64,000 nt of DNA from Burkholderia sp. BCC0506 (GTDB lineage Bacteria > Pseudomonadota > Gammaproteobacteria > Burkholderiales > Burkholderiaceae). This document shows positions 16,006-41,976 of this stretch, in pieces; within the stretch, counting starts at the first letter, position 1; each line of letters begins with the position of its first letter. A program made the position numbers and the translations under genes. Under the pieces are notes generated by a model. It did not search any database and was not told the origin of the DNA. It saw only the letters and a program-made list of their open reading frames with translations. The DNA is taken from NCBI RefSeq assembly GCF_902833145.1, contig NZ_CADFEN010000001.1:187994-251993 (forward strand). The letters are read 5' to 3'.

Positions 16006-16248
16006 TCAATCCGGCCGTCCATCCGGTGCGACGTCGCGATCGACCGACCGTTCGTCGCGCCAGTCCGCCAGTTCGCGCCACAGCGCCGGGCGCGCATGGT
16101 CGCGCGGCGGCAACGGGATCACGCACGCGACGCCCCGCACGTTGACCACCACGCCCGAATCGGGCAGCGTGGCCGGGATGCCGGAGGACGAAAGATCGGC
16201 GTCGGGTTCGGAAGGGGTGCCCTGGCCGGGCGGGTGTCGAAACATCAT
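16006..16248 (-). CDS. small hypothetical protein at the end of the afc-type operon
   Basis: An 80-residue frame from the ATG at 16248 with GGAGA upstream (spacing 6), 32 bp after the FAD oxidase gene. The N-terminal third is Pro/Ser-rich. The middle, DSGVVVNVRGVACVIPLPPR, is the only hydrophobic stretch, and the C-terminus is charged (LWRELADWRDERSVDRD). I do not recognise a family. The ribosome site, position and terminator beyond it support a real last gene of the operon. It is easily missed because longer frames overlap it. Confidence 0.55.
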   Translation of the reverse strand: MMFRHPPGQGTPSEPDADLSSSGIPATLPDSGVVVNVRGVACVIPLPPRDHARPALWRELADWRDERSVDRDVAPDGRPD

Positions 16249-16280
16249 GCGAAATCTCCGTGGCGCCGCGAACCGGCGCG

Positions 16281-17699
16281 TCAGTAGCGAACCCGCCCGA
16301 TCAGGCCGAGCGGGTCGACGGCGTGCTGGATGGCGCGGGCGAGCTGCCGTTGCGTGGCCGGCACATGCTTGCGGTAGTACGCGATATTGACCGGCCCGAC
16401 GCCATGCTCCGCGCTGAAGCAGCCGCCTGCCTGCGCGACGCGGTCGTACAGCGCGCCGCGCAATGCCACCTGCTGCAGCGGCCCGTAGCGGTGCGCGTCG
16501 GCATGCGGGATCGACACGACGAGATGGCAGCCGCCGTCGCCGAAATGCCCGAACGCATGGCAGCGCAGCGACGGGTGCGCGGCGGCGAGCCACTGCTCGG
16601 CGTCGGCGACGAACCCGGCCAGCGCGCCGCGCGGGAACGACACGTCGAACGACAGCGGCAGGCCGTCGTGCGCGACCGCGGCCGGCAGCGCGTCGCGAAT
16701 CCGCCAGAACCGTTCCGCCGGCGCGCATGCCGCGTCGAGCGCCACGCGTTCGGTCGCGAGCGCGTCGAGCGTCGCGACGGTGCGCGCCTCGAGCAGCGCG
16801 TCGAGGCCCGGCATGCCGGTCGCGATCTCGACGAGCGCGTAGCACGCGGCGGCGCTCGCCTCGAACGGAATGCGCAGCGCCGGATATACCGCCGCGACGC
16901 AACCGACCGCCGCCGCCGACATGAATTCGAACGCCGACAGCATCTCGCCGAACGCGCGTTCGAACGCGAGCAGGCCGGCGAGCGCCGCGTCGTACGACGC
17001 GAACGCGACGAACGACGCGCACGATGAGCGTTCGAGCGGCGCGAGCGCGAACGACACGGCCGTCACGAGTCCGTTCGCGCCATTCGCGCCGATGAAGCAC
17101 TGCGCGACGTCGAAGCCCGCGTTGCGCTTGCGCAGCGGCGCGAGCGCGTCGATCACGGTGCCGGCTTCGTCCGCCAGCACGACTTCGACGCCGAGCACGT
17201 GACGGCGCACGTCGCCGTACTTGATCAGGCGGCTGCCGCCGGCATTCGCGCCCACGAGGCCGCCGGCGGCCGGATCGCTGCCGAGATCGATCGGCATGCA
17301 GAGCCCGGCTTCGCCCGCCACGCGGTTGATGTCGGACAGCCGCACGCCGGCCTCGACCGTGATGCTGCGATTGGCCGGATCGAACGCGCGAACCGCGCGC
17401 ATCCGCTCGAACGACACCACGCATTGCGTGCCGCCGCGATCGGGCACGGCGGCGCCGACGAGCCCGGTGCGCGCGCCCTGGGCGACGAGCGCGATCCGGT
17501 GCGCGACGGCCACGCGGGCGAGCGCGCGCACGTCGGCGGTCGACGCCGGCCGCGCGACGCCGAGCGGCACGCCGCCGTGGCGCGCGACGTCGGTCGCATA
17601 CGGCTCGCAGGCCGCGCCTTCGAGCCAGCCGTCGCCGAGCGCCGCGGCGAGCGCGTGCCGTTGCGTGGCGGGTGCCGCGTGTGCAGGCAGCGCGTTCAT
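16281..17699 (-). CDS. FAD-binding oxidoreductase of the GlcD/D-2-hydroxyacid dehydrogenase type
   Basis: A 472-residue flavoenzyme from the ATG at 17699; the open frame is longer but runs into the neighbouring gene. The FAD-binding PCMH domain has VAQGARTGLVGAAVPDRGGT early and DLGSDPAAGGLVGANAGGSR as the pyrophosphate/flavin motif. The C-terminal substrate domain ends with CFSAEHGVGPVNIAYYRK, the usual GlcD-like signature. Such enzymes oxidise 2-hydroxy acids or related alcohols. It sits 2 bp after the membrane-protein gene within the operon. From memory, an FAD oxidoreductase at this end of the B. cenocepacia cluster is called AfcF; I leave the symbol open. Confidence 0.85.
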   Translation of the reverse strand: MNALPAHAAPATQRHALAAALGDGWLEGAACEPYATDVARHGGVPLGVARPASTADVRALARVAVAHRIALVAQGARTGLVGAAVPDRGGTQCVVSFERMRAVRAFDPANRSITVEAGVRLSDINRVAGEAGLCMPIDLGSDPAAGGLVGANAGGSRLIKYGDVRRHVLGVEVVLADEAGTVIDALAPLRKRNAGFDVAQCFIGANGANGLVTAVSFALAPLERSSCASFVAFASYDAALAGLLAFERAFGEMLSAFEFMSAAAVGCVAAVYPALRIPFEASAAACYALVEIATGMPGLDALLEARTVATLDALATERVALDAACAPAERFWRIRDALPAAVAHDGLPLSFDVSFPRGALAGFVADAEQWLAAAHPSLRCHAFGHFGDGGCHLVVSIPHADAHRYGPLQQVALRGALYDRVAQAGGCFSAEHGVGPVNIAYYRKHVPATQRQLARAIQHAVDPLGLIGRVRY

Positions 17700-17701
17700 C
17701 G

Positions 17702-18244
17702 TCAGCCGGCCCGCGCGAGCTGCCTGCGCAGCCGGCCGCGCACGACGACCAGCGCGATCAGCGGCACGACGCCGCCCCACAGCGGGCTGTGGCGCATCGC
17801 GATCGATACCGCGAGCGCGACGGCGGTGACGGCGAGCAGCACGAGCGACAGCGAACGCGCACGCGCGTGGTCGACGAACGTGCCGTCGACGAAGCCGCCG
17901 TCCGACCACGCCGTATGCACGATGCCGACCACCAGCACGCAGACGAGCATCGCGGCCGGCCCGAGTTCCTCGCCCCACAGACGGCTACCTGTCGGCGAGA
18001 CGAGCGCGAGCACCGCGCCGATCACGAGGAACAGGTCGACGCCGATCGCGATGCTGTTGCGCTCGGCGCGGCGGATCAACCACGCGCCGTGCACGAGCGC
18101 GAGCACGCCGCCGATCAGGAACGCGTGGGTCCAGCGCAGGTCCGGCTGCCCGGGGCCGAGCCGGCCGTAGAACAGGAACACGATCGCCGGCAGGAAGTTG
18201 CTCGCGTGCAGCAGGTAGCCGGTTATGGGATGGGTCGATTTCAT
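17702..18244 (-). CDS. small integral membrane protein of the afc-type operon
   Basis: A 180-residue protein with five to six predicted membrane helices, for example HASNFLPAIVFLFYGRLG, WTHAFLIGGVLALVHGAWLI, IAIGVDLFLVIGAVLALVSP and SLSLVLLAVTAVALAVSIAM, and a basic C-terminal tail (RGRLRRQLARAG). I do not recognise a family. It lies between the ABC permease and the FAD oxidase genes with gaps of 37 and 2 bp. It might anchor the oxidase or act as an accessory membrane factor in lipid handling. Confidence 0.75.
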   Translation of the reverse strand: MKSTHPITGYLLHASNFLPAIVFLFYGRLGPGQPDLRWTHAFLIGGVLALVHGAWLIRRAERNSIAIGVDLFLVIGAVLALVSPTGSRLWGEELGPAAMLVCVLVVGIVHTAWSDGGFVDGTFVDHARARSLSLVLLAVTAVALAVSIAMRHSPLWGGVVPLIALVVVRGRLRRQLARAG

Positions 18245-18281
18245 CGGTGTTTCTCCTTCGTCGAAACTGCGGGGCGACGCG

Positions 18282-19361
18282 TCACGCGTCGTGCCAGCGG
18301 AACAGCCGCGCGGCGGCGAACAGGAACAGCGCGGTGCACACGGTCATGCCGAGCAACTGCGGCGCGAGCTGCGCGTACGGTGCGCCGTCGACCAGCGCGC
18401 CGCGCAGCGCGACCGCGAACTGGTTGGTCGGCAGGAACGCGAGCGCGGCCTTCAGCCACGCGGGCGCGTCGTGCATCGGGATCGTCAGGTCGCTGAAGAA
18501 CAGCAGCGGGTAGTAGGTGACGTTGCACGCGAGTTCGGCGGCCGCGAGCGAGCGCGTGCGGCTGGCGAGCAGCACGCCGATGCTCAGCACCATCGCGGCG
18601 CCGAGCAGCACGATCGGCAACGCGCGCAGCCCGTCCGGCGTCGCGATCGGCAGCGCGATGCCGAACGCGACGCGCGCGACCGTCAGCAGCACGAGCGCCG
18701 ACAGCGCCATCATCGCCATGCGCGCGACGATCAGCGCGGCGAGGAATACGCCGCGCGACACCGGGAAGCACACGTACAGCTTGAACGTATTGCGCTCGCG
18801 CAGCGCGGCGATCGCGGTGGTCGTCGAGTTGAGGCCGATCGCCATGAACGCCATCACCAGGATGCCGGTCGCGAAGAACGCGCCGTAGTCGAACGGGCGG
18901 CGCGCCGGCGCGGCATTCTCGAAGCGCGCCTGCGCGGCCGGCAGCCCGAGCCGCTGCGCGGCGCAGCGCGCGAGCGCGATCTCGACGACGCGCGACGCGG
19001 CCTTGACCGCGAGCGAGCCGTTGAAGTCGTAGCGGATCGTCGCCGGCGTGCGCTCGTCGGCGCCGAGCACGACGGTCACGCGCTCGGCCGGCGCGCCGCG
19101 GCCGCCGAAGGTCGCCTTCACCGTGTCGCTGTGCGACAGGCTGGCGACGATCTCGGCCTTGCACGCCTGGTTGTACGGCGTCGCGCCGCCGGGCAAGTCG
19201 AATGCGATGTCGGCCGTGCCGAGCGAGCCCGAGCCGCCGAACGCGAACAGCATCACGCTCAGCAGGAACACCGGGAACACGAGCGTCCAGAACAGCGACG
19301 AGCGGCTGCGCAGATAGCCGAGCAGCTCGTTGCGCACGAGGATCAGGAATACCTTAGTCAT
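18282..19361 (-). CDS. ABC-2-type transporter permease
   Basis: A 359-residue permease from the ATG at 19361. It overlaps the ATPase gene by 8 bases, and the longer open frame upstream is not protein-like. One N-terminal membrane helix (about residues 21-42) is followed by a periplasmic domain of roughly 130 residues (GGATPYNQACKAEIVASLSH and on). Five helices follow, with LRERNTFKLYVCFPVSRGVF as the cytoplasmic coupling region. This is the ABC-2 layout used for drugs, lipids and polysaccharide intermediates. With the upstream ATPase it makes one complete exporter within the operon. Confidence 0.88.
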   Translation of the reverse strand: MTKVFLILVRNELLGYLRSRSSLFWTLVFPVFLLSVMLFAFGGSGSLGTADIAFDLPGGATPYNQACKAEIVASLSHSDTVKATFGGRGAPAERVTVVLGADERTPATIRYDFNGSLAVKAASRVVEIALARCAAQRLGLPAAQARFENAAPARRPFDYGAFFATGILVMAFMAIGLNSTTTAIAALRERNTFKLYVCFPVSRGVFLAALIVARMAMMALSALVLLTVARVAFGIALPIATPDGLRALPIVLLGAAMVLSIGVLLASRTRSLAAAELACNVTYYPLLFFSDLTIPMHDAPAWLKAALAFLPTNQFAVALRGALVDGAPYAQLAPQLLGMTVCTALFLFAAARLFRWHDA

Positions 19362-20367
19362 GGGTCGGCCCCTCGGTGCACAGGCGCAGCAGGTCGCCCG
19401 GCGTGCTTGGCGCGAGCGCGAGATGCTGGATGCCGCGTTCGCCGACGATCCGGTGCACGTTCGGATGCAGCGTCGCATCGCCGAACGCCTCGACCACGTG
19501 CGCGGCCGACACGCGCACGCCGGTCACGCCCGGCAGCGCCGCGAGCCGCTTGCGCAGCGCGCGCGCATCGGCTTCGTCGCGGCAGTGCAGCACCGCGCGC
19601 GCATCGCCGACGAGCTCGGCGCGCAGCGTGTCCTGACTGCCCTGGTAGCGCACGCCGCCGTCGCGCACCCACACGAGATCGTCGACCACGCTCAGTTCTT
19701 CCTCGGAATGGCAGATCATCGCGACGCTCGTGCCGCTCGCGCGGTGCCGCAGCAGGTCGATCACGACGCCCGCATAGCGGCGATCGAGCCCCGTGAACGG
19801 CTCGTCGAGCACGGCCAGCTCGGGCCGGTGCGCGAGCGCGACGTAGAGGTCCACGCGCTGGCGCTGCCCCTTCGACAGCGCGCGGCACGGCTTGGCGAGC
19901 AGTTCGGCGATGCCGAGCGCGTCGGTGATCGCCGCATCGGTGTGCGCATACATCGCGCGGTGCAGCGCGACGATCTCGGATACGCGCAAGTGATCGGGAT
20001 ATTCGACCTTCTGCAATTGCGCGCCGATCCGCCGCAGCGAGCGCGAATCGCGCATGAAGCGTTCGGCCGGCACGTCGAGCACGCGCACGTCGCTGCCGCC
20101 GCGCCGGAAGCCGAGCAGCGTTTCCAGCAGCGTGGTCTTGCCCGAGCCGTTGGGGCCGACGATCGCGGTGATCGCGCCGCGCCGGAACCGCACGTGGCGC
20201 GCGCGGAAGCGGAAATCGCCGGCCGCGACGTCGATCGCGCGCGCGCCGAGCGCCGCGCCCGGCGCATGCGCATCCGGCTGCGACGGCGTGCCCGCGCGCC
20301 GCGGCCGGTCGAACGCGGCGGGCGGGCCGAACATCGCGCGCACCGAGGAGAGAAACGAAACGCTCAT
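19354..20367 (-). CDS. ABC transporter ATP-binding protein
   Basis: A 337-residue ATPase from the ATG at 20367. Walker A is IVGPNGSGKTTLLETLLGF (about residue 70) and Walker B is LAVLDEPFTGLD. The signature loop is CRALSKGQRQRVDLYVALA, where the Ser-Lys-Gly-Gln form is an accepted variant of LSGGQ. A switch His follows in ICHSEEELSVVDD. A C-terminal domain of about 80 residues is typical of DrrA/ABC-2 ATPases. It is coupled to the permease gene by an 8-base overlap. An unusual 50-residue N-terminal extension, Pro/Arg-rich, precedes the nucleotide domain. Confidence 0.9.
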   Translation of the reverse strand: MSVSFLSSVRAMFGPPAAFDRPRRAGTPSQPDAHAPGAALGARAIDVAAGDFRFRARHVRFRRGAITAIVGPNGSGKTTLLETLLGFRRGGSDVRVLDVPAERFMRDSRSLRRIGAQLQKVEYPDHLRVSEIVALHRAMYAHTDAAITDALGIAELLAKPCRALSKGQRQRVDLYVALAHRPELAVLDEPFTGLDRRYAGVVIDLLRHRASGTSVAMICHSEEELSVVDDLVWVRDGGVRYQGSQDTLRAELVGDARAVLHCRDEADARALRKRLAALPGVTGVRVSAAHVVEAFGDATLHPNVHRIVGERGIQHLALAPSTPGDLLRLCTEGPTHD

Positions 20368-20378
20368 CGCCCGCGCCC

Positions 20379-21452
20379 TCAGTCGAACAGCATGACCTGC
20401 GTGTCGCGCGCGCCCCGGTACGGGTTGCGGCCGTGCGCGACCAGCATGTTGTCGACGACGAGCACGTCGCCGGCCTGCCACGGGAACGCGAATTCTTCGT
20501 CGTCGAGCGCGTCGTAGATCGCCACGAGGTCGTCGAACGGCATCGGCGAGCCGTCGCCGTAGCGGATCTCGTACGGGAACGCGGCGCGCGTGCCGTACAT
20601 CCGCTGCAGGTAGCGGTAGCTGAGTTCGCCCATCGAGCGCGGGTTCGGGTGCTGCGCGCTCGCCTGGTTGAACCACACCGTCTCGCCGGTGCGCGGATGC
20701 GTGCGCAGCGCGCTGCCGACGTGCGACACGGTCACGCTGCCGTCGTCGAGCCAGCGGCAGCCGACGCCGCGCTGCGCGCACAGCCGCTCGACTTCGTCGC
20801 GCTCCGTCGTGCCGAACGCGTCGTCCCACGGCCGGTGGTACGCGGCGAACGGCAGGTTCGGGTTCGCGGCGAGGCCGTCGGCGCGGTCGCCCGGCGCCGC
20901 GAAATTGCGCAGGTACATCACGCCGCGCTCGGCGAACCGTGCGCGCAGCGCGGCCGGCACGCGCGCGGTCACGCGCCGCATGTCGCAGATCGGCGTCTCG
21001 CCGCCGGCGTCGGCCGGCAGCCGGCAGTAGAACGCGACGAGGCGCGGGAACGCGGGCATGTAGGCCATCTCCTGGTGCAGCCCGATCCTGAACGGCGGCG
21101 GCATGCGGGTCGACTCGTAGACCTGGCCGTCGATCTGCCGGCGCGGGGCGGCGCCGGCCGTATAACCGTTCGCGTGCGGCGGATACAGCGCGCCGAGGCG
21201 GCCGAACGCGGCGGTGTCGGGCACCGCGAAGCCGCGCCACAGCAGCGCGCCGCATGCGTCGAGCAGCGTGTCGATCGTGTCGAGCCGCGAGCGGTACCAC
21301 GCGACGAACATGTCCGGCGACGTCGCGAGTTCGGCGCTGCGCGGCGTCACGCACAGCGGCAGCGTCGCGCCGGGCGCGACCGGCGCGCAGTGCACGTCGT
21401 CGGCGCCGAGCCGTACGGCGGCATGCGCGGCGAGGAAGGCGAGATCGGTCAT
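20379..21452 (-). CDS. TauD/TfdA-family Fe(II)/2-oxoglutarate dioxygenase, SyrP-like
   Basis: A 357-residue dioxygenase. The iron facial triad is visible as His and Glu of GLHQEMAYMPAFPRLVAFYC (a HxE in place of the commoner HxD) and the distal His in VVDNMLVAHGRNPYRGAR, with the last Arg placed to bind 2-oxoglutarate. The HxEM-Y form is characteristic of SyrP-like hydroxylases in natural-product clusters, which hydroxylate carrier-bound or free acyl/amino-acid substrates. It sits between the methyltransferase gene (3-bp gap) and the ABC ATPase gene (11 bp). It likely hydroxylates or desaturates the operon product. Confidence 0.85.
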   Translation of the reverse strand: MTDLAFLAAHAAVRLGADDVHCAPVAPGATLPLCVTPRSAELATSPDMFVAWYRSRLDTIDTLLDACGALLWRGFAVPDTAAFGRLGALYPPHANGYTAGAAPRRQIDGQVYESTRMPPPFRIGLHQEMAYMPAFPRLVAFYCRLPADAGGETPICDMRRVTARVPAALRARFAERGVMYLRNFAAPGDRADGLAANPNLPFAAYHRPWDDAFGTTERDEVERLCAQRGVGCRWLDDGSVTVSHVGSALRTHPRTGETVWFNQASAQHPNPRSMGELSYRYLQRMYGTRAAFPYEIRYGDGSPMPFDDLVAIYDALDDEEFAFPWQAGDVLVVDNMLVAHGRNPYRGARDTQVMLFD

Positions 21453-21455
21453 CGC

Positions 21456-22118
21456 TCAGGCCAGCGCCGGTTTCTTCAGCAGGATTTCGAAGCCGAGCGC
21501 GCCGAGCCCCGCGCTCGGGCTGTAGATCGACGCAACCTCGGCCAGACCGGCTTCGGCCACCAGCGCATGCGCTTCGTCGAGCGTGATCTTTTCCTCGACG
21601 TGGGTCGGCGGATAGTCGGCGGCGGCGCGCATCTCGGTGAAGCGGTCGAGCAGGTGCTGCGGCGCGTCGCGGCGCATGTCGTGCACGAGCGCGATGCCGC
21701 CCGGCTCCAGCACGCGGTACATCTCGGTCAGGCTGAGCGCCTTGTCGGGCAGATGGTGCAGCGTCGCGCGGCCGACCGCCATCGTCAGCGTGCCGTCGTC
21801 GAACGGCAGCGCGAGCGCGTCGCCGACGCGCATCTCGATCGTGTCGTCGAGCCCGAGTTCGCGGATGCGCGGGCGGCCTTCGTCGAGCATCGCCGGATCG
21901 AGGTCGATGCCGACGTAGCGCCAGCCGCGCATCGCCGGATCGGTCGCGAGCCGCACCGGCACGACGCCGGTGGCCGTGCCGATGTCGGCGATCGTGCCGG
22001 GCGTCATCCCGCGCGCCAGCTGGCGGATGCGGCTGATGAACAGCAGGTCCCACGGTTCGAGCGTTTCGGTGGCGAAGCGATCGTAGTCGTTCGCCGGGCG
22101 CAGGTTCTTGAGCAGCAT
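21456..22118 (-). CDS. SAM-dependent class I methyltransferase
   Basis: 220 residues from the ATG at 22118 (the frame extends upstream without protein character). The Rossmann-type SAM motif I is TIADIGTATGVVPVRLATDP, motif II holds YVGIDLDPAMLDEGRPRI, and the post-motif MRVGDALALPFDDGTLTMAV follows. This is the Methyltransf_11/UbiE-like build that acts on small molecules. The acceptor is not identifiable. Context suggests O- or C-methylation of the lipid product. Confidence 0.85.
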   Translation of the reverse strand: MLLKNLRPANDYDRFATETLEPWDLLFISRIRQLARGMTPGTIADIGTATGVVPVRLATDPAMRGWRYVGIDLDPAMLDEGRPRIRELGLDDTIEMRVGDALALPFDDGTLTMAVGRATLHHLPDKALSLTEMYRVLEPGGIALVHDMRRDAPQHLLDRFTEMRAAADYPPTHVEEKITLDEAHALVAEAGLAEVASIYSPSAGLGALGFEILLKKPALA

Positions 22119-22146
22119 GACGTTCCTTGTGCGAAAGGGTGAAGGT

Positions 22147-23391
22147 TCACAGCCAGCCGACCGGCACGGCGGCCAGCAGCCGTCGCGCGGTCGCGCTGTT
22201 GACGCCGAACGCCGGGCGGCGGCGCCGTTCCACTGCATGCGCGGCCATCGCCGCGATGCGTGCGCCGAGCCCGACGCCGACGCCCCACGACGACGCGGCG
22301 ACGCCGAGTTCGAGCAGCGTCGCGGCGGTCAGGAAATCGATGTTCGGCCGCAGCGCGCGGCGCGCGTCGGCCTGCGCGCAGCACGCGTCGAACAGCGTCA
22401 CGTAGCCGCCGTCGAAGCCGCATGCCGCGAACCGGCCGCGCAAGTGCGGCGGCCGTGGATCGGCGACGAACAGCGGGTGGCCGAAGCCGTACAGCGTGCG
22501 TTTGGCGTCGAGCGCCGCATCGATCGCCGCGCGCCCGGCCGCGTCGAGCGCGGCGGCCGGCGCGCCGGCGCCGCCCGGCACCGACCGCGCGAGCGCCGTG
22601 AGCCACTGCATCGCTTCGAGCGCCGCGCCGACGTGCGACGGCCCGCTCGCGAGGAAGCCGGACGCGATCGCCTGCGTGAGCGTGACGCCGGTGCCGATCG
22701 CGACGCGCGGCGCGAGCACGGTCGGCGTGATGTAGCCGAAGCCGGCGTGCCACGCGACGAGCAGCATGTCCATCGCCGCTTGCGCCGGCGCGTCGGCGCG
22801 CGTCGCGCCGGTCAGCACGAGCATGCGTTGCGCGTGCGTCCGCGCTGCGTCGAGCGCGGGGCCGCCGCGGGCGTGCGGGCCGGCGGCGAACGGCCGGCCC
22901 TCGATCGCCGCGTGCAGCAGGAACGGCGCGGCGGCCGCGCACAGCAGCATCGTGTCGAGATCGGCATCGTCCGGCGCCGGGCCGCGCACGCGGTCGGTCA
23001 CGTCGTCGAGGCCGCGCAGCAGGCCGGACGCAGCCGCGAATACCGGCGCGACGCCCGCCGCGCCGAGGTCGGCGGCGACCGACTGGGCGACCGAGCCCGG
23101 CGCCAGCGCGTCGGCGAACGCGGCGAGCCGCGCGCCGATCGTCGCCTCGTGCGCATGATGGTCGGCGTGGCCCGGCGCGACGTCGAACCACAGATGCGCG
23201 AGCGCGCCTTCGAACGTCGTCGCGCCGATCAGCGCGTTCAGGTCGAGGTCGCGCACGCGCAGCGCTTCGGGGTCGAGCGTCGCACCGTCGATGTCGGTGC
23301 CGCGATGGCGCGTAGTCGGCCGGCCGAGCAGGTTGCGCGGCGCGTCGTTGGCCGCGGTGGCGGCGGTGCGGGAGTCGAGTGTCGTGTCCAT
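22147..23391 (-). CDS. citrate-synthase-family enzyme of the biosynthetic operon
   Basis: A 414-residue citrate synthase homologue (ATG at 23391, 1 bp after the dehydrogenase stop). All three catalytic residues of the family can be placed: His in FLASGPSHVGAALEAMQW, His in LYGFGHPLFVADPR, and Asp in LRPNIDFLTAATLLELG. The protein should therefore be able to condense an acyl-CoA with a 2-oxo acid. It is clearly diverged from housekeeping citrate synthases (short, Ala-rich, LSGGxH variants). In this setting it may make an alkylcitrate-type head group or perform a 2-methylcitrate-like step. Product and substrates are inference. Confidence 0.8.
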   Translation of the reverse strand: MDTTLDSRTAATAANDAPRNLLGRPTTRHRGTDIDGATLDPEALRVRDLDLNALIGATTFEGALAHLWFDVAPGHADHHAHEATIGARLAAFADALAPGSVAQSVAADLGAAGVAPVFAAASGLLRGLDDVTDRVRGPAPDDADLDTMLLCAAAAPFLLHAAIEGRPFAAGPHARGGPALDAARTHAQRMLVLTGATRADAPAQAAMDMLLVAWHAGFGYITPTVLAPRVAIGTGVTLTQAIASGFLASGPSHVGAALEAMQWLTALARSVPGGAGAPAAALDAAGRAAIDAALDAKRTLYGFGHPLFVADPRPPHLRGRFAACGFDGGYVTLFDACCAQADARRALRPNIDFLTAATLLELGVAASSWGVGVGLGARIAAMAAHAVERRRRPAFGVNSATARRLLAAVPVGWL

Positions 23392-23392
23392 G

Positions 23393-32575: not shown

Positions 32576-32582
32576 CGCCGTA

Positions 32583-32837
32583 TCAGGCCGCGTGCTGCTG
32601 GCGGCGCAGTTGCGCGTCGAGCTGCTGCAGCGTCGTGTATTGCGTGATGTTCAGCGCTTCCGGGTCGATCGAACCGTACAGCTGTTCGCAGAACACGATC
32701 AGCTCGACGATGTTCAGCGAATCGATGCCGAGTTCGCCGATGCCGGCGTCCGTGTCGACGGTTTCGACGTTGAGGATCTTCGCGACTTCGCGGGACAGGA
32801 TGTCGAGCGCGTCGGCCGGAACGTTCTGGGTCGTCAT
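32583..32837 (-). CDS. acyl carrier protein
   Basis: An 84-residue acidic helical protein with the phosphopantetheine site GELGIDSLNIVELIVFCEQL, Ser40 being the attachment residue. The DSL motif and a following helix II with NIVELIVFCE are canonical. ATG at 32837 with GGAG just upstream. It is the only carrier protein in the operon, so it probably receives the fatty acyl group from the FAAL at 37958 and presents it to the condensing and diiron enzymes. Confidence 0.93.
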   Translation of the reverse strand: MTTQNVPADALDILSREVAKILNVETVDTDAGIGELGIDSLNIVELIVFCEQLYGSIDPEALNITQYTTLQQLDAQLRRQQHAA

Positions 32838-32895
32838 GAGGGGAGCTCCTGAAGTTGAGTTGAATTGATCGGGATCGATCGGCCTGTCGCGTGGG

Positions 32896-33981: not shown

Positions 33982-33994
33982 GGCTGGGTTCCTG

Positions 33995-35332: not shown

Positions 35333-36065
35333 CGGCGAGCGTGTCGGGGTTGAACCAGCCCGACGGAATCTTGCGCGGCTGGCCGTCGAGGATGTCGACG
35401 ACGCTCGCGCGCTGCTTCTCGACCTCGTTGCGATACGTGATCTTGCGGATCACCTTGCGACCGTTCGCGTCGACCGGCGCGGAGAAATCCGCGCTGCGAA
35501 ACAGCAGGCCGCTTGCCAGGAAGAACTGCGCGCGCAGCGGCACGTCGGTATCGGGCGATACCCACAGCTTGATCGTCGGGTACACGTTGTCGGGATCGGT
35601 CGCGGTCAGGTCGAGCTCGGTGGCCGGCTTGCCGGCGATCGGCGTCGTGCCGGGCGCGGCCGTCGCGCGATAGCTGTCCGCCCAGTGCGTGCGCGTGATG
35701 TCGCTGATCACGACTTCGCCCTGCAGCCGCTGCATCCCGTTGATGCGCACCGCGCTGCGCGTGTTCGGCACGTAGAACCAGTGCCCGCGCGTGGTCGCGA
35801 GGTACTTCTGGCCGTCGTTCTCGCCGCTGCGCGTCAGCGCGAGCGTGTCGCCGTTGCCGCGCGTGTAGACGAGATAGCGGGTCGCGTCGCCGGCTTGTCC
35901 GCCGACTTCGTTGGTGATCTGGATGTTCGTCTGCGTATCGGCGGCCGTGCTCCGGTAAGCGTCGGCGCGGGCGAGCATGGTCTGGGCCGTCGGCGCGTCG
36001 GCCGCCGGCGCGGCGAGCGGCGCGCACGCGACGAGCGCGGCGAACGTAAGGCGAATGCGATTCAT
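35322..36065 (-). CDS. LolA-like periplasmic carrier protein
   Basis: 247 residues with a signal peptide (MNRIRLTFAALVACAPLAAP, then AADAPTAQ). The mature protein is a half-barrel of the LolA_like / outer-membrane lipoprotein-sorting superfamily: DGQKYLATTRGHWFYVPNTR, ELDLTATDPDNVYPTIKLWV and RKVIRKITYRNEVEKQRA are characteristic strands. Such proteins chaperone lipids or lipoproteins across the periplasm. The gene overlaps the permease gene by four bases (ATGA) and the barrel gene by 11, forming a four-gene export module with the ABC proteins. Confidence 0.82.
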   Translation of the reverse strand: MNRIRLTFAALVACAPLAAPAADAPTAQTMLARADAYRSTAADTQTNIQITNEVGGQAGDATRYLVYTRGNGDTLALTRSGENDGQKYLATTRGHWFYVPNTRSAVRINGMQRLQGEVVISDITRTHWADSYRATAAPGTTPIAGKPATELDLTATDPDNVYPTIKLWVSPDTDVPLRAQFFLASGLLFRSADFSAPVDANGRKVIRKITYRNEVEKQRASVVDILDGQPRKIPSGWFNPDTLADGQ

Positions 36066-37279
36066 GGGGCGAGTCCTTCGAGGATGTTGCGTTTCGCGAG
36101 CCCGAGCGTCGCGAGCAGCGCCGCGGCCACGCCGAGCACGACGAACGCGGCTTCGACGGCGGCCACGGCGGCCGGCGACACCGTGAATTCGAGCAGGATC
36201 GGTTTCACGCGGCCGGGCGGCGCGGGCAGGTGGATCTGCGCATGATTGAGCGCGACCATCGTCAGCAGCGCCACGGCGATGCCGGCGGCCGCACCGAGCA
36301 GCCCGAGCAGCGCGGTTTCCTGGACCAGCACGCCGCGCACCGTGACGGCCGGCACGCCGAGCGCGCGCAGCGTCGAGATCTCGCGGCGTCGCTCGACGAT
36401 GCTCATCAGGATCCAGTTGCTCATCGACAGCAGGATCGTCACGCAGAGGATCGCGCCGAACACCGAGAACTGGTTCTTGTACAGCGCGACGACCTGGTGA
36501 TAGAGCGACACGAGCTGGTCCCAGGTCTTCACGTCGAGCGTCGGCAGCGCGGCGCGCAGCGTCGCGGCGGCGGCCGGCGTGCCGGCGGTGTCGTGGAGAA
36601 ACACCGCGATGCGCGACGCACGGTCGGTACGCAGCAATGCCTGTGCGGCCGTGAACGTCACGTTGACGATCCGTTCGTCGACGTCCTTGTTGCCCGTGCT
36701 CATCACGCCGACGATCTGCGCGTCCGTCGCGTTGATGCCGCCGTGCGCGGTCGACGCCATCAACTGCACGACCGAGCCGACGTGCACGCCGAGCTTGCGT
36801 GCGAGTTCAGCGCCGACGACGACTTCGGTACCGGCATTCGTCGGCGACAGATAGCGGCCCGACAGTACCGTGTGATAGTCGAAGAAGCCGGGCGGTTCGC
36901 GGTTCGGCTCGATGCCTTCGCCGACGAAGCCGTAACTGAGATCGCCGTTCGACACGAGCCCGTCGAAGTCGATGCCGCGCGCGGTCGTCGCGACGTCGTG
37001 CAGCGTGGCGATCGCGCGGGCGGCGGCGGCTTGCTCGTCGGCGCTCAGCCCGTACTGCAGCGGCCGCTCGCCGATCAGGTCGAGATAGCCGTGGTGCAGC
37101 ACCTGCACGTGGCCGACGCCGCTGTCGATCGAGCCTTCTCGCACCGCGTCGAACGTCGCGATCACGTAGCCGAGCGCGAGGCTCGACGCGAACGCGGCGA
37201 CGCCGATCATCGCCATCGTCAGCACGGTGCGGCGCCGGTTGCGCCAGAGGTTACGCCACGCAAACGTCGACCAGTTCAC
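36062..37279 (-). CDS. FtsX/MacB/LolC-type ABC transporter permease
   Basis: A 405-residue permease with one N-terminal helix (VLTMAMIGVAAFASSLALGY), a large periplasmic domain of about 220 residues and three C-terminal helices. The cytoplasmic coupling loop reads SIVERRREISTLRALGVPAV, the classic FtsX/MacB/LolCE sequence. This class does not translocate across the inner membrane but drives periplasmic events such as extraction of lipids onto LolA. It overlaps the ATPase gene by 29 bases. Confidence 0.9.
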   Translation of the reverse strand: MNWSTFAWRNLWRNRRRTVLTMAMIGVAAFASSLALGYVIATFDAVREGSIDSGVGHVQVLHHGYLDLIGERPLQYGLSADEQAAAARAIATLHDVATTARGIDFDGLVSNGDLSYGFVGEGIEPNREPPGFFDYHTVLSGRYLSPTNAGTEVVVGAELARKLGVHVGSVVQLMASTAHGGINATDAQIVGVMSTGNKDVDERIVNVTFTAAQALLRTDRASRIAVFLHDTAGTPAAAATLRAALPTLDVKTWDQLVSLYHQVVALYKNQFSVFGAILCVTILLSMSNWILMSIVERRREISTLRALGVPAVTVRGVLVQETALLGLLGAAAGIAVALLTMVALNHAQIHLPAPPGRVKPILLEFTVSPAAVAAVEAAFVVLGVAAALLATLGLAKRNILEGLAP

Positions 37280-37961
37280 GATTCACTCCCGGTACGCCAT
37301 CGCGCATCTCGATGCGGCGCGGCAGGTGCGCGCACAGACGATCGTCGTGCGACGCAATCAGAAAGGCGGTGCCCAGCGTGCGGTTGGTGTCGAGGATCAG
37401 CTCGGCCACCGCGCGCGCGTTGGTGCTGTCGAGGCTCGCGGTCGGCTCGTCCGCGATCACGATCGCCGGCTCCTTGGCGAGTGCGCGGGCCAGCGCGACG
37501 CGCTGTTGCTCGCCGCCGGACAGCTCGCCGGGGCGGTGGCGTTCGCGCGCGGCGAGCCCCACCGCGTCGAGCATCGCGCGGGCGCGTTCGCGCCGTGTGC
37601 GCGGCGTGCCCCACGCGAAGCAGCCGAGCTCGACGTTCTCGAGCGCCGACATCACCGGAATCAGGTTGAATTGCTGGAACACGAAGCCGATGCGTTCGCG
37701 GCGAATCCGTTCGAGCGTGTCCGGCGTGTCGTCGATGCGGCGGCCTTCGAGCCAGCGTTCGCCGCTGCTCGGTACGTCGAGAAAGCCCGCGAGATTGAGC
37801 AGCGTGCTCTTGCCGCTGCCCGACGGGCCGACGAGCGCGATCACGTCGCGCCGGCCGATCGAGATCGTCGCGCCGCGCACCGCGACGACGCGGCCCGCGC
37901 CCTCGTACACGCGCGTGACGTCGCGCAGCTCGAGCACGGCGCCAGGCGAGGCGGCCGTCAT
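37251..37961 (-). CDS. LolD/MacB-type ABC ATPase
   Basis: 236 residues from the ATG at 37961, which overlaps the FAAL stop (ATGA). Walker A is ALVGPSGSGKSTLLNLAGFL, the signature is RPGELSGGEQQRVALARALA, Walker B with the D-loop is IVIADEPTASLDSTNARAVA, and the His switch is in FLIASHDDRLCAH. The FVFQQFNLIPVMSALENVEL Q-loop is standard for the MacB/LolD group. It energises the FtsX-type permease encoded next. Confidence 0.93.
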   Translation of the reverse strand: MTAASPGAVLELRDVTRVYEGAGRVVAVRGATISIGRRDVIALVGPSGSGKSTLLNLAGFLDVPSSGERWLEGRRIDDTPDTLERIRRERIGFVFQQFNLIPVMSALENVELGCFAWGTPRTRRERARAMLDAVGLAARERHRPGELSGGEQQRVALARALAKEPAIVIADEPTASLDSTNARAVAELILDTNRTLGTAFLIASHDDRLCAHLPRRIEMRDGVPGVNRELVDVCVA

Positions 37962-39721
37962 GCGAACGCTCCCTGGCCCGCTTCGACGGCGGCCGACGCG
38001 GGAATCACGGGCAACGCGCCGTTCGCATAGAGATCGCGACACTTCAGGCGCTGCAGCTTGCCGCTCGTCGTGCGCGGCAGCGAGCCGGGCTCGACGAAAC
38101 ACAGATCCTGCGCGGCGAAGCCGATGCGCGACGCGAGCAGTTGCTGGCATTCGGTGCGCGTTTGCGGCGTCGCGTCGACCGGCCGCGCCTCGATCGCGAC
38201 GACCAGCCGCTCGGTGCCGGTTTCGGGGTCGGGCAGGCCGAACGCGATGCACGTACTCTTGCGCAGCGCGCTGTGCGACGCCAGCGCCTCCTCGATCTCG
38301 TGCGGGAAATAGTTGCTGCCGCGAATGATGATGACTTCCTTCTTGCGGCCGAGGATATGCAGCTGGCCGTCCGCGACGTAGCCGATGTCGCCGGTGCGGA
38401 ACCAGCCGTCGGCCGTCAGCGGCGCGGCGATCGTGCCGTCGGCGGGGTTCAGGTAGCCGAGCATCACCGACGTGCCGCGGATCGCGACTTCGCCGACGGC
38501 GCGATGGCCCAGCACATGGTCGCCGTCGTCGAGGATGCAGAACGCCATCCCGTCGATCGGCGTGCCCATCGCGAGCACCGTCTCGGTCTCCGTATCGAGG
38601 CCGTCGTTCGCGGCGGCCGGCTGCGCGTCGCGGCGCTCGATCAGCGCGCGCCGGTCGAGCGTATCGGCGATCACGTACGGCGCGCCGTCGACCGTGCCTT
38701 CGTGCCACGCGCGATGCATCGATACCGCGAGCGTCGATTCGGCCATCCCGTAGCATGGCTGCAGCGCCGACGCCGCGAGGCCGTACGGCGCAAACGTCGC
38801 GGCGAAATCGCGCAGCGTCGCGTCGTCGACGCGTTCGCCGCCGATGAAGATGTTGCGGCACGCGGACAGATCGACGCCGTCCATCGCGGCGGCATTGAAG
38901 CGGCGCACGCAGTAACGCAGCGCGAAGGTCGGCACCGACGTCGTCGTCGCGCGTGCCGACGCGATGCGTTTCAGCCAGCCGAGCGGGTTACGGATGAAAC
39001 TGTTCGGCTGCATCATCAGCAGCGGCGCGCGGTAATGCAGGTTCGACAGCAGCGTGAGCAGCCCCATGTCGTGATAGAGCGGTAGCCACGACGCGGTGCC
39101 GTCGCCGGCCGCGATATCGAAGCGCACCGACCCGCCGATGCCGAGTACGTTCGCGATCACGTTCTCGTGGCTGAGCACGGCAGCCTTCGGATGCGACGTC
39201 GACCCCGACGTGAGCTGCACGTGATGCGGATCGCGGCCGCTCTTCGCGCTGATCAGTGCGCGCGTGCCGGCATCCGCGGCGCTCGACAGCGTCGCGAGAT
39301 CGACGACGCGCGTGGCGGCGGCGGGAAACGCGTCGTCGCGCCAGGTCGCGGCCTGCGCGTCCGCGGCGATGACGAGGCGCGGCCGGTACAACTCGCACGC
39401 GACGTCCGCCACCTGTCGCCCGGCCGCGGCACGCCGCGCGGGAACGGGCACGGTACACGGCAGCGCGCCGGTCATCACGCAGGCCATCATCGCGGCCGCA
39501 TGCTCGACCGACGCGGGCAGCGCGAGCATCACCAGATCGTTCTCGCGCACCCCGAGCTCGCGCAATGCGCCGGCCTGGCGAAACACCTCTTCCGCGAAGT
39601 GCCGGTACGTGATGCCCGCTTCGCGGCCCGCGTCGTCGACGAACGTCATGCGATGCATGGCGCCCGCCACGTCTTCGAGCGATTCGATCAGGCGATGAAT
39701 GGTGGATGCGCACTTCGTCAC
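37958..39721 (-). CDS. fatty acyl-AMP ligase (FAAL), first gene of the afc-type operon
   Basis: 587 residues from a GTG at 39721 that has GGGGAG seven bases upstream; an ATG frame from 39760 would add 13 residues without a ribosome site. ANL motifs: HVQLTSGSTSHPKAAVLSHE (P-loop), ASWLPLYHDMGLLTLLSNLH and SALQPCYGMAESTLAVSMHR, all of FAAL type, then GWFRTGDIGYVADGQLHILG and a C-terminal SLPRTTSGKLQRLKCRDLY with the catalytic Lys. FAALs form acyl-adenylates from free fatty acids and load an ACP, here presumably the one at 32583. It opens the 23-gene operon. Confidence 0.88.
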   Translation of the reverse strand: MTKCASTIHRLIESLEDVAGAMHRMTFVDDAGREAGITYRHFAEEVFRQAGALRELGVRENDLVMLALPASVEHAAAMMACVMTGALPCTVPVPARRAAAGRQVADVACELYRPRLVIAADAQAATWRDDAFPAAATRVVDLATLSSAADAGTRALISAKSGRDPHHVQLTSGSTSHPKAAVLSHENVIANVLGIGGSVRFDIAAGDGTASWLPLYHDMGLLTLLSNLHYRAPLLMMQPNSFIRNPLGWLKRIASARATTTSVPTFALRYCVRRFNAAAMDGVDLSACRNIFIGGERVDDATLRDFAATFAPYGLAASALQPCYGMAESTLAVSMHRAWHEGTVDGAPYVIADTLDRRALIERRDAQPAAANDGLDTETETVLAMGTPIDGMAFCILDDGDHVLGHRAVGEVAIRGTSVMLGYLNPADGTIAAPLTADGWFRTGDIGYVADGQLHILGRKKEVIIIRGSNYFPHEIEEALASHSALRKSTCIAFGLPDPETGTERLVVAIEARPVDATPQTRTECQQLLASRIGFAAQDLCFVEPGSLPRTTSGKLQRLKCRDLYANGALPVIPASAAVEAGQGAFA

Positions 39722-39906
39722 GAGGATTCTCCCCTTGAGGAACACGGCCGCTCGCGCCACGGTGCCGGCGGCGCCGTTCGTCGAGTGAGGAGGATTCTTG
39801 CCGGATCGATACGCGGCGACAAACGGAATCTATGCAGGCTATGCATGAGCGGAGCGCATCCACCCGGGCCTGCGCAAGCCGCTATTCATGTGACCGAGCG
39901 CCAGGT

Positions 39907-39932
39907 GACCGGTCGGTCTCATTCGACCGGTC
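39907..39932. promoter_or_regulatory. 9-bp inverted repeat, operator candidate
   Basis: GACCGGTCG (39907-39915) and CGACCGGTC (39924-39932) are perfect inverse copies with 8 bp between them. Each arm itself contains the 8-bp palindrome GACCGGTC, so the site can also be read as two tandem palindromes 18 bp apart centre to centre. Confidence 0.55.
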
Positions 39933-39980
39933 GTCTAGTTCACGATGTGGTGCGCTCATGCGCGGGCGTCATGCAATGCG

Positions 39981-40003
39981 TTCGGAAAATTCGTTTGTCC
40001 GAA
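39981..40003. promoter_or_regulatory. TTCGGA-N11-TCCGAA inverted repeat
   Basis: Perfect 6-bp arms with an A+T-rich 11-bp middle (AAATTCGTTTG). The T-N11-A-like spacing of the dyad suits a LysR-type regulator such as ShvR. It lies 88 bp before the TTG start of the desaturase gene. Confidence 0.45.
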
Positions 40004-40090
40004 ACATCGACTCACAGAAGAATTGCAACCCGGCAGCGCGCCAGCGTCGCCGCGTCATCGTGCCGGGCAGCCCGGCCCAAGGAGAGCGTC

Positions 40091-41086
40091 TTGTCCGTCA
40101 CCTCATCGCTTGTCGCCCGCCCGAAACCCGTTACAGACATGAAGAGCCGCCCGAGCGGCGTGGTCTTCTCGCTGAAGCTGGTCGTATACGTCGCGCTCAT
40201 CGCGCACGGGATGATGTTCGCGCTGTCGGCGCTCGTGATCCTGAAGGTGGCCGGCATCCTGCTGATCGGCGCGATGTATGCGCACGGCGTCGAGCTGCAG
40301 CACCAGGCGCTGCATTACCAGGGGTTCCGCAGCAAGCGCCTGAACATGGTGTTCGGCGTGCTGCTCGGCATGCCGATGCTCGTGTCGTTCCATGCGTACC
40401 AGGACAGCCACCTGCGTCATCACCGGCTGCTCGGCACACCGGAGAACAAGGAGTTCTTCGACTACGGCGACCAGTACGGCGCGAGCCCCGTCGTCCATGT
40501 CGGGCTGTGGGTGTGGCGCCTGTCGATGGCCGCGCACTATATCCAGTTCGCGAAGAACGTCGCGAAGCTCGTCGTGCCGGGCGCGCGCTTCGGCGACAAC
40601 GCGCTCGTGTCGCGCGCGATCCGCCGCGACTACCTGCTGATGGCGGCGGCGATCGCGCTGCTGGCCGCGCTGTCGTTCGCGTTGCACACGTGGTTCGTCG
40701 TGTGGGTGTGGATCGTGCCGCTCGTGTTCGTCGCGGCGCCCGTGCATGCACTGGTCGAGATGCCCGAGCACTACCGTTGCGACCTGACGAGCACCGACCC
40801 GTTCCGCAACACGCGGACGATCGAGAGCAACGCGTTCATGACGTGGTTCACGAACGGCAACAACTATCACGTCGAGCATCACATGATGCCGAACCTGCCG
40901 ATCGAGCGGCTGCACGACCTGCACGGCGCGATCGCCCCGCGCATCCGCTATTACCACCGCACGTATCGGCAGTTCTACTACGCGTTGCTGCGCGGCCGGC
41001 TGTCGCCGCGTTCGGTGGACGACGATCGGGACGACCGCGAGCCCGACGCCGAAGCGGCTGCGCCGGCGTCCACCCAGTCGGCGTGA
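40091..41086 (+). CDS. membrane fatty acid desaturase / hydroxylase
   Basis: 331 residues if translated from the TTG at 40091, which is preceded by AAGGAG six bases upstream; the first ATG (40139) has no ribosome site and would give 315. The three His boxes of membrane diiron desaturases are present: HGVELQHQALHYQG (HxxxxxHxxxH region), DSHLRHHRLLG (HxxHH) and NGNNYHVEHHMMPNLP (HxxHH), with four long hydrophobic helices between. It would desaturate or hydroxylate an acyl chain in the membrane. Its stop overlaps the start region of the next gene (GTGA at 41083). From memory the divergent pair corresponds to afcAB. Confidence 0.85.
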   Translation: MSVTSSLVARPKPVTDMKSRPSGVVFSLKLVVYVALIAHGMMFALSALVILKVAGILLIGAMYAHGVELQHQALHYQGFRSKRLNMVFGVLLGMPMLVSFHAYQDSHLRHHRLLGTPENKEFFDYGDQYGASPVVHVGLWVWRLSMAAHYIQFAKNVAKLVVPGARFGDNALVSRAIRRDYLLMAAAIALLAALSFALHTWFVVWVWIVPLVFVAAPVHALVEMPEHYRCDLTSTDPFRNTRTIESNAFMTWFTNGNNYHVEHHMMPNLPIERLHDLHGAIAPRIRYYHRTYRQFYYALLRGRLSPRSVDDDRDDREPDAEAAAPASTQSA

Positions 41087-41124
41087 GCGCCGATGCCGAA
41101 TACCTTGCGACGACGGTGACGACG

Positions 41125-41976
41125 ATGCTCTATCCGGAACTTTTCAGGTCGCTGGAAGCGGTTCGCTGGGACATGGAGAAGGACATTCCGTGGAACCGGT
41201 TCGATCCGACGTTGCTCACCGACGAGCAGGCCGAGACGATCAGGATGAACGCGATCACCGAATGGTCGGCGCTGCCCGCGACGGAAATGTTCCTGCGCGA
41301 CAACCGGCACGACAGCGACTTTTCCGCGTTCATGAGCGTGTGGTTCTTCGAGGAGCAGAAGCACTCGCTGGTGCTGATGGAATACCTGCGCCGTTTCAGG
41401 CCGGAGAGGGTGCCGACCGAGGCGGAGCTGCATGCGGTGCGCTTCGAGTTCGATCCGGCGCCGCCGCTCGAGACGCTGATGCTGCACTTCTGCGGCGAGA
41501 TCCGCCTGAACCACTGGTACCGCTGCGCGGCCGACTGGCATACCGAGCCCGTCATCAAGCAGATCTACGAAACGATTTCGCGCGACGAAGCGCGTCATGG
41601 CGGCGCGTACCTGCGCTACATGAAGAAGGCGCTGAACAACTGCGGCGACGTCGCGCGTGCCGCGTTCGCGAAGATCGGCGTGCTGATGGCGTCGGCGCGC
41701 CGTACCGAGAAGCCGCTGCACCCGACCAACCTGCACGTGAACCAGGCGCTGTTCCCGCGCGACACCGTGCAATCGCGTCTGCCGGATCCGGAATGGCTCG
41801 AGCGCTGGCTCGACGAGCAGATCCGTTTCGACGGCGAGTGGGAGAAGAAGGTGGTCGAGCGGATCCTGCACAACCTGTCGATCCTGTTCGGGCGCACGTT
41901 CGCGACCGCGCAGGAGCTGAACCGCTATCGCCGCGAAGTGACGGCGCGGGCGACCGGCGCGGCGGAGCGCCCCTAG
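41125..41976 (+). CDS. ferritin-like diiron protein, second of the cluster
   Basis: 283 residues from the ATG at 41125; a GTG at 41083 that overlaps the desaturase stop would add 14 residues and allow coupled translation. Diiron ligand helices include SVWFFEEQKHSLVLMEYLRR (ExxH) and YETISRDEARHGGAYLRYMK (ExxH), with further Glu in TEWSALPATEMFLRD and MLHFCGEIRLNHWYR. It resembles acyl-ACP-desaturase/AurF-like diiron oxygenases. Together with the membrane desaturase it modifies the acyl chain. It is more hydrophilic than, and only distantly like, the diiron protein at 30078. Confidence 0.82.
   Translation: MLYPELFRSLEAVRWDMEKDIPWNRFDPTLLTDEQAETIRMNAITEWSALPATEMFLRDNRHDSDFSAFMSVWFFEEQKHSLVLMEYLRRFRPERVPTEAELHAVRFEFDPAPPLETLMLHFCGEIRLNHWYRCAADWHTEPVIKQIYETISRDEARHGGAYLRYMKKALNNCGDVARAAFAKIGVLMASARRTEKPLHPTNLHVNQALFPRDTVQSRLPDPEWLERWLDEQIRFDGEWEKKVVERILHNLSILFGRTFATAQELNRYRREVTARATGAAERP

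What the first reader, a model, noticed from the sequence alone, without database searches (positions are those of the whole stretch)
16006..41976. A 25-gene lipid-type biosynthetic and export locus in two divergent units
Seen: 23 minus-strand genes (39721 to 16006) are packed with gaps of at most 58 bp and mostly overlaps or 1-3 bp spacings, next to two plus-strand genes. They encode a FAAL, an ACP, an acyl/aminoacyl ligase, a PLP decarboxylase, three thiolase-fold proteins, a citrate synthase homologue, two acyl-CoA dehydrogenase-fold proteins and two diiron proteins. A membrane desaturase, a SyrP-like dioxygenase, a methyltransferase, an FAD oxidase and two ABC export systems complete the set. 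Known from memory: the afc cluster beside shvR affects antifungal activity and colony form. Inferred: the product is a modified acyl (perhaps acyl-amine) lipid whose structure is, to my knowledge, not settled. The combination has no NRPS or PKS module.
Basis: partly seen in the sequence, partly recalled or inferred. Interest (0 to 1): 0.85.

Follow-up and report, generated by a model that had tools for sequence, protein, structure and literature searches.

The report
Known antifungal lipopeptide gene cluster (afc)
This is the known afc gene cluster of the Burkholderia cepacia complex, whose product, an antifungal lipopeptide built without the usual condensation domains, was solved in 2025; comparing it with distant relatives suggests that its peptide-making part is a separable cassette found outside Burkholderia too.

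Summary
In detail: 23 minus-strand genes (39721 to 16006, largest gap 58 bp) and two plus-strand genes, next to a LysR gene. It is the afc cluster with shvR. So it is a peptide, not an acyl-amine lipid, and the locus is already known. What I add is comparative. Searches with AfcL, which forms the last peptide bond, found near-full clusters in Trinickia and another genus of the family, and core-only clusters in a Ramlibacter MAG, an ambiguously binned MAG, a member of the same class and another Burkholderia. In all eight AfcL-bearing lineages examined there is also an AfcM homologue; AfcM is essential and called glycosyltransferase-type in print, yet shows no invariant catalytic residue. A bolagladin-type cluster lacks AfcL, AfcM and AfcJ but shares the citrate genes. 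This splits afc into a citrate-lipid module and a beta-peptide module, suggests that AfcM is AfcL's partner, and, with the published mutant formulae, favours citrate-primed fatty-acid synthesis over the late coupling suggested in the paper.

The parts
37958..39721 (-). afcA, fatty acyl-AMP ligase (caps the beta-Ala trimer)
   Evidence: AMP-binding PF00501 8e-50; function from PMC12186527
37251..37961 (-). afcB, ABC ATPase of a MacB-type exporter
   Evidence: ABC_tran 5e-30
36062..37279 (-). afcG, MacB/FtsX permease
   Evidence: MacB_PCD, FtsX
35322..36065 (-). afcH, LolA-like lipoprotein-sorting protein
   Evidence: LolA_like 4e-24
33995..35332 (-). afcI, outer-membrane protein by the paper
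   Evidence: no Pfam hit; dispensable in print
32896..33981 (-). afcJ, acyl-CoA-dehydrogenase-fold protein, candidate dehydro-beta-alanine dehydrogenase
32583..32837 (-). afcK, sole carrier protein
   Evidence: PP-binding 7e-7; Ser40 present
31694..32575 (-). afcL, KAS III-like peptidyl transferase
   Evidence: Cys113/His240/Asp245 invariant in 11 of 11 copies
31063..31692 (-). afcM, linked partner of AfcL (my proposal)
   Evidence: homologue in each of the eight AfcL-bearing lineages examined; only P105, G148 and N150 invariant in 10 sequences
30078..31061 (-). afcN, AurF-like diiron protein
   Evidence: AurF 3e-15
29087..30076 (-). afcO, KAS III-like, candidate citryl-CoA starter condensing enzyme
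   Evidence: ACP_syn_III 2e-5; present in 5 of 5 citrate-synthase-bearing lineages examined (window)
27922..29097 (-). afcP, PLP decarboxylase (aspartyl to beta-alanyl)
   Evidence: Orn_DAP_Arg_deC 6e-9
26331..27905 (-). afcQ, stand-alone adenylation enzyme
   Evidence: AMP-binding 3e-82; Arg308 and Lys500, read from the printed stretches, match the paper's R311/K503 with one 3-residue offset
25243..26334 (-). afcR, KAS III-like by the paper
   Evidence: no Pfam hit; present in 5 of 5 citrate-synthase-bearing lineages examined (window)
23393..25246 (-). afcE, acyl-CoA dehydrogenase (BolQ homologue)
   Evidence: Acyl-CoA_dh_C 3e-22
22147..23391 (-). afcS, citrate synthase homologue
   Evidence: Citrate_synt 1e-20
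21456..22118 (-). afcT, O-methyltransferase
   Evidence: Methyltransf_11 2e-17
20379..21452 (-). afcU, TauD-family dioxygenase
   Evidence: TauD 2e-33
19354..20367 (-). afcV, ABC ATPase
   Evidence: ABC_tran 1e-19
18282..19361 (-). afcW, ABC-2 permease
   Evidence: ABC2_membrane_3 1e-19
17702..18244 (-). afcX, membrane-associated by the paper
   Evidence: no Pfam hit
16281..17699 (-). afcF, FAD-linked oxidase
   Evidence: FAD-oxidase_C 2e-32
16006..16248 (-). 80-aa ORF of unknown role, coding status uncertain
   Evidence: 82-89% identity over 80 residues in two relatives
40091..41086 (+). afcC, membrane desaturase (lysine desaturation in print)
   Evidence: FA_desaturase 3e-39
41083..41976 (+). 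afcD, acyl-ACP-desaturase-like protein, dispensable in print
   Evidence: FA_desaturase_2 2e-7
42595..43587 (+). shvR, LysR-type regulator of afc
   Evidence: LysR_substrate 4e-28, HTH_1 3e-21
39722..40090 (.). divergent control region between afcA and afcC
   Evidence: lies between the two start codons

Best explanation
The locus is the afc cluster, 24 afc genes plus one small ORF, with its regulator ShvR, and most likely makes AFC-BC11 or a close congener. Shown in print with homologous proteins or mutants of other cepacia-complex strains: AfcQ adenylates aspartate and loads it on the carrier AfcK; AfcP decarboxylates it to beta-alanine; repetition gives a trimer; the FAAL AfcA caps the trimer with an acyl chain; AfcL takes up beta-alanyl peptides and passes the trimer to lysyl-CoA; AfcC desaturates the lysine; AfcT methylates the malate end; AfcS and AfcF are needed for the citrate-derived end. 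Inferred here: (1) the acyl chain is made by priming fatty-acid synthesis with citryl-CoA (AfcS) through the KAS III-like AfcO, helped by AfcR, with seven malonyl extensions, rather than by late coupling of citrate to the methyl end of myristate; (2) AfcM is not a tailoring glycosyltransferase but a partner protein of AfcL; (3) AfcE and AfcJ together make the dehydro-beta-alanines, AfcE perhaps the E one and AfcJ the Z ones; (4) the two ABC systems (B/G/H/I and V/W/X) export the product.
For: Identity: gene set, functions and divergent layout match the 25-gene afc cluster in PMC12186527. Key residues agree. In a named B. anthina locus (L034) the 19 genes that the stretch covers, D to T, are all present in the same order at 93-99%. 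Priming: the acyl acids deduced from the paper's formulae are C21H36O7 (wild type), C20H34O7 (afcT mutant), C18H32O5 and C18H32O4 (afcS and afcF mutants). These equal citrate, malate and succinate starters plus exactly seven C2H4 units and one double bond. The main text I read reports no plain myristoyl product for the afcS mutant, and the afcO mutant makes nothing. AfcO and AfcR are present in five of five citrate-synthase-bearing lineages (cepacia complex, G505, Trinickia, G036, bolagladin-type G014) and absent from three of four without it (the exception is in the Against line). AfcM: each of eight AfcL-bearing lineages has a homologue. Five are found by direct comparison (window, G505, Trinickia, G036, Ramlibacter MAG) and three only by a profile search of 2,064 ORFs from overlapping stretches (G048 1.2e-16, G908 1.9e-14, C201 9.3e-15 and 2.7e-5). 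The L-less bolagladin-type locus has none (best E 0.88 in 770 ORFs). Only P105, G148 and N150 are invariant across ten AfcM sequences.
Confidence: 0.9

Rival explanations
1. Late omega-coupling, as discussed in PMC12186527: myristate is loaded first and a citryl unit is later joined to its methyl end.
For: AfcA prefers myristic acid and refuses dicarboxylic acids in vitro. AfcO- and AfcR-like proteins also occur without citrate synthase in G048.
Against: The afcS mutant products fit C18 dicarboxylic and hydroxy-dicarboxylic chains, with no plain myristoyl peptide in the main text. AfcO is essential. AfcO and AfcR are present in five of five lineages with citrate synthase and absent from three of four without. 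Citrate priming was already proposed for the matching acyl group in bolagladin.
Confidence: 0.3
2. One reading: a modified acyl or acyl-amine lipid.
For: FAAL, desaturases and dehydrogenases are present, and no condensation domain appears.
Against: The solved product of the orthologous cluster is a peptide, and the AfcQ, AfcK and AfcP genes are intact here, with the key residues of AfcQ and AfcK.
Confidence: 0.03
3. AfcM is a glycosyltransferase-type enzyme, acting on a transient sugar or another substrate.
For: It is named so in PMC12186527.
Against: No Pfam family at E 0.001, no PDB sequence relative below E 2, no invariant acid, base or nucleophile in ten sequences, no sugar in the product, and co-occurrence with AfcL.
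Confidence: 0.1
4. This strain makes a congener that differs from AFC-BC11, for example in chain length or in the number of dehydro-beta-alanines.
For: Minor congeners are reported for other strains.
Against: The enzymes are 93-99% identical to a relative in the complex over 19 genes.
Confidence: 0.1

Closest known systems
afc cluster / AFC-BC11 (Burkholderia cepacia complex; PMC12186527, PMC6301696)
   Same: Gene set, divergent layout, neighbouring shvR, carrier Ser40, AfcQ Arg/Lys residues, AfcL catalytic triad; 93-99% identity and same order over 19 genes of B. anthina.
   Different: No difference that would change the chemistry was found. One extra 80-aa ORF at the end is of uncertain status; the paper's supplementary gene table was not seen.
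bolagladin cluster (B. gladioli; PMC7756342), seen here as the matching unnamed locus G014
   Same: Shares shvR-, A-, K-, N-, F-, D-, O-, P-, Q-, R-, E-, S-, T- and U-type genes; matching citrate-derived acyl end in print.
   Different: Has a large NRPS reading frame (3,601 codons seen); no match for B, G, H, I, J, L, M, V, W or X and only a weak C match in about 94 kb.
Partial afc cluster on chromosome 1 of the pseudomallei group (reported in PMC6301696), resembled here by the unnamed locus G036
   Same: A, J to R, E and S to X present.
   Different: No G, H, I, F, D or shvR match; B only as a cross-match to V; only a weak C match.
VinN/VinO-type beta-amino acid loading (as described in PMC12186527 and PMC7756342)
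   Same: Beta-carboxyl activation of an aspartate and decarboxylation on a carrier.
   Different: Belongs to vicenistatin biosynthesis, where it supplies a polyketide starter (recalled), not an iterative peptide.

Membership tests
afc / AFC-BC11 cluster | 24 afc-type genes beside shvR in two divergent units | tested here: met
   order over 19 genes against B. anthina
afc / AFC-BC11 cluster | Stand-alone Asp-type adenylation enzyme with the Arg and Lys named in the paper; carrier with Ser40 | tested here: met
   (S40 exact; R308/K500 against R311/K503, same offset)
afc / AFC-BC11 cluster | KAS III-like AfcL with Cys/His/Asp triad | tested here: met
   window C113 is the cysteine of the CAGW stretch and would be the paper's C111 if the annotated start differs by two residues
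afc / AFC-BC11 cluster | No NRPS condensation domain | tested here: met
   no condensation domain among Pfam matches of 26 proteins
afc / AFC-BC11 cluster | Production of AFC-BC11 | not testable with these tools
   needs LC-MS
Classical modular NRPS | Condensation, adenylation and carrier domains in one chain | tested here: not met
Bolagladin cluster | Tetramodular NRPS (BolH) | tested here: not met
   no such gene among the 26 proteins of 16006-43587
Citrate-primed fatty-acid pathway | Citrate synthase homologue with KAS III-like enzymes | tested here: met
   afcS with afcO by Pfam; afcR by the paper; co-occurrence
Citrate-primed fatty-acid pathway | Citryl-CoA used as starter | not testable with these tools
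   needs isotope feeding or in vitro assay
Glycosyltransferase (AfcM) | Recognisable glycosyltransferase sequence family or fold | tested here: inconclusive
   no Pfam hit; fold comparison weak

The most novel reading that the evidence does not exclude
AfcL plus AfcM, with the carrier, adenylation enzyme, aspartyl decarboxylase and dehydrogenase, form a separable and probably mobile cassette for making beta-amino-acid peptides without condensation domains. Nature joins it to different acyl-chain or precursor modules: citrate-primed lipid in afc; FabA-like, ketoacyl synthase and reductase genes in another Burkholderia (G048); a duplicated set beside a methylaspartate mutase chain in an ambiguously binned MAG, predicted to make methyl-dehydro-beta-alanine. 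AfcM would be a new kind of essential partner of a KAS III-like amide-forming enzyme.
Probability: 0.6. Interest if true: 0.6.

Novelty: already known. Interest (0 to 1): 0.4.

Why it matters
For this locus the long-open structure question is already answered in print, so a reader who knows the 2025 paper would not be surprised. The comparison still makes several open points of that paper directly testable: how the citrate end is attached, what the essential AfcM does, and why there are two dehydrogenases. It also points to related clusters outside Burkholderia, for which I found no report in the searches named, that should make new dehydro-beta-peptides.

Tried and rejected

Slips: the BLAST database file L001.fa held several loci, so its rows mix records, and no file L002.fa existed; I use its residue checks, and for the small ORF. 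In one search some profiles (D above all, also J, U, M) were built from over-long reading frames, so some of its rows, such as D hits antisense to afcA, are artefacts; one search repeats the comparison with the window proteins alone and is what I cite for presence and absence. In one search the bolagladin line left out one water; corrected by hand it is C21H34O7, citrate plus seven units, two double bonds and O-methyl. In one search the AfcJ of G908 was cut at a locus end; it was translated correctly, but the bad row stayed in the AfcJ comparison. In one search the fourth protein was given in a wrong frame, so the LuxI-like reading there is by eye.
Full report
What is there. The window lies in a 7.29 Mb, 45-contig genome whose locus is closest to the Burkholderia cepacia complex; AfcL is 98% identical to B. 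anthina. Between 16006 and 39721 the minus strand carries 23 genes in a nearly gapless relay, and two plus-strand genes lie at 40091-41976. A LysR gene follows at 42595-43587. Gene letters are mine, assigned from order and function against the paper's text. They fit the gene numbers printed for afcE and shvR in PMC6301696 and the one I recall for afcF, and the positions of Ser40 in AfcK and of the AfcQ arginine and lysine.

It is a known cluster with a solved product. A literature search for afc and shvR listed PMC12186527 (J Am Chem Soc, June 2025). I read parts 1 to 4 of 5 of its text, which cover all results and conclusions; the rest is references, and the supplement was not seen. It reports AFC-BC11 as an N-acyl tetrapeptide: an O-methylated malate-ended fatty acyl group, three dehydro-beta-alanines (Z, Z, E) and gamma,delta-dehydro-lysine. 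AfcQ, AfcK and AfcP build the beta-alanine trimer, AfcA caps it, and AfcL passes a beta-alanine trimer to lysyl-CoA. PMC6301696 (abstract and one results section read) describes shvR and the cluster in ten species of the complex and a partial copy in the pseudomallei group. PMC7756342 on bolagladin was read in parts 1 to 3 of 5.

Conservation. In the named B. anthina locus L034, the 19 genes D to T that the fetched stretch covers are all present in the same order. In the genus, strong AfcM matches were found in 20 of 65 genomes, plus one weak match that I judge chance. AfcS matches at E 1e-40 were found in 21 of 65: the same 20, plus G014. The AfcL profile matched 25 of 398 genomes of the family, two of them weak and partial, and 4 of 398 of the phylum, two of them weak. 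AfcL alone matched 2 of 399 genomes of the order, one of them weak.

Relatives outside the complex. A scan of named genomes with an AfcL alignment gave 14 loci: ten in Burkholderia, one in Trinickia symbiotica, one Ramlibacter MAG, and one contig present under two MAG names of different phyla (the two stretches are identical). Gene content, compared with the window proteins alone, is as follows. G505: all afc genes but D, and shvR. Trinickia: all but C and shvR, the contig ending inside D. G036: A, J to R, E and S to X, a weak C. Bolagladin-type G014: A, K, N, O, P, Q, R, E, S, T, U, F, D and shvR, and a large NRPS frame, but no B, G, H, I, J, L, M, V, W or X in about 94 kb. Core only: Ramlibacter MAG K, P, M, J, N, L, E, Q and an ABC exporter; contig C201 with three K, two Q, two P, two L, two M, one J, one E and a methylaspartate mutase E chain; G908 with K, E, L, J, P, Q and B-, G- and H-like genes, M by profile and a weak I-like hit; G048 with K, P, Q, E, two L, V and W, M by profile, O-like and R-like proteins, and FabA-like, ketoacyl synthase, SDR and two Rieske genes nearby.

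Reading of the pattern. Two modules separate. The citrate-lipid genes S, T, U, O and R are shared by afc and the bolagladin-type cluster, as are D and F, although D is missing from G505 and D and F from G036. K, P, Q and E, which make and oxidise beta-alanine, occur in all nine lineages. L and M occur together in all eight AfcL-bearing lineages and are both absent from the bolagladin-type locus (best AfcM profile E 0.88; the best AfcL profile hit, E 0.008, falls on its AfcR homologue). J is with them in seven of eight, missing in G048. L and M are neighbours in the window (1 bp apart) and overlap by 4 bp in one C201 unit, but are apart in the Ramlibacter MAG. AfcL keeps Cys113, His240 and Asp245 in 11 of 11 copies, whereas Cys109 is not kept in the distant ones. 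AfcM shows only P105, G148 and N150 invariant in ten sequences, with R142 and D35 among those kept in nine. That is unlike an enzyme, and does not fit the name glycosyltransferase-type used in print for this essential gene. I propose that AfcM is a partner of AfcL. Its fold model is moderate and has no telling match.

The acyl chain. From the printed formulae, the acyl acids are C21H36O7 in the wild type, C20H34O7 without AfcT, and C18H32O5 and C18H32O4 without AfcS or AfcF. These equal citrate, malate or succinate starters plus seven C2 units and one double bond. Bolagladin A gives the same count after a hand correction. Had myristate been loaded first and citrate added later, the afcS mutant should give a plain myristoyl peptide, which the main text does not report; the afcO mutant makes nothing. 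AfcO and AfcR accompany citrate synthase in five of five lineages and are absent from three of four without it; the exception, G048, has O-like and R-like proteins together with other fatty-acid-type genes, which fits a role in chain initiation but not a tie to citrate alone. I therefore favour citryl-CoA priming, as proposed for bolagladin, at about 0.65, against the late coupling discussed in the 2025 paper. The preference of AfcA for myristate speaks the other way.

Literature limits. Searches for AFC-BC11, AfcL/AfcQ/AfcJ, Trinickia with afc, dehydro-beta-alanine clusters, enamidonin and citations of the 2025 paper were seen as listings only. None of the titles or abstract openings listed describes the AfcL-AfcM pairing or core-only relatives, but only openly licensed papers are held, and I did not open the six papers that name both Trinickia and afc.

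Noticed in passing
L046 and L047 (JAFAXZ010000033.1, JAFAUQ010000134.1; G462:C201): The same 46.6 kb contig appears under MAGs of two different phyla (the 13 kb stretches held are identical); it holds a duplicated afc-like core with a methylaspartate mutase E chain, so its true owner is unclear.
   Followed up: partly
L096 6578-11048 (G908:C27:26577-31047): An AT-rich afc-like island beside GC-richer genes, in which the B-like and G-like exporter genes are each split into two reading frames; a recombinase-like ORF (read by eye) lies near it.
   Followed up: no
L045 2990-5055: LuxR-like and LuxI-like ORFs, recognised by eye only, lie directly upstream of the core cluster in the Ramlibacter MAG, suggesting quorum control.
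   Followed up: no
L094 and L095 (G048:C157): A further Burkholderia cluster combines the beta-peptide core with FabA-like, ketoacyl synthase, SDR, KAS III-like and two Rieske genes, suggesting a dedicated acyl or polyene chain.
   Followed up: partly
L105 7366-8304 (G014): A ShvR homologue, 59% identical, lies beside the FAAL gene of the bolagladin-type cluster, so the regulator occurs with both cluster types.
   Followed up: partly
window 16006-16248: An 80-aa ORF behind afcF, conserved in two relatives but not matched in the more distant clusters; not clearly in the published gene list.
   Followed up: partly
window 43741-44565: An alpha/beta hydrolase next to shvR, kept there in 6 of 7 further cepacia-complex loci examined.
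   Followed up: partly
window 12991-15909: A DctP-DctQ-DctM TRAP transporter operon abuts the 3' end of the cluster.
   Followed up: no
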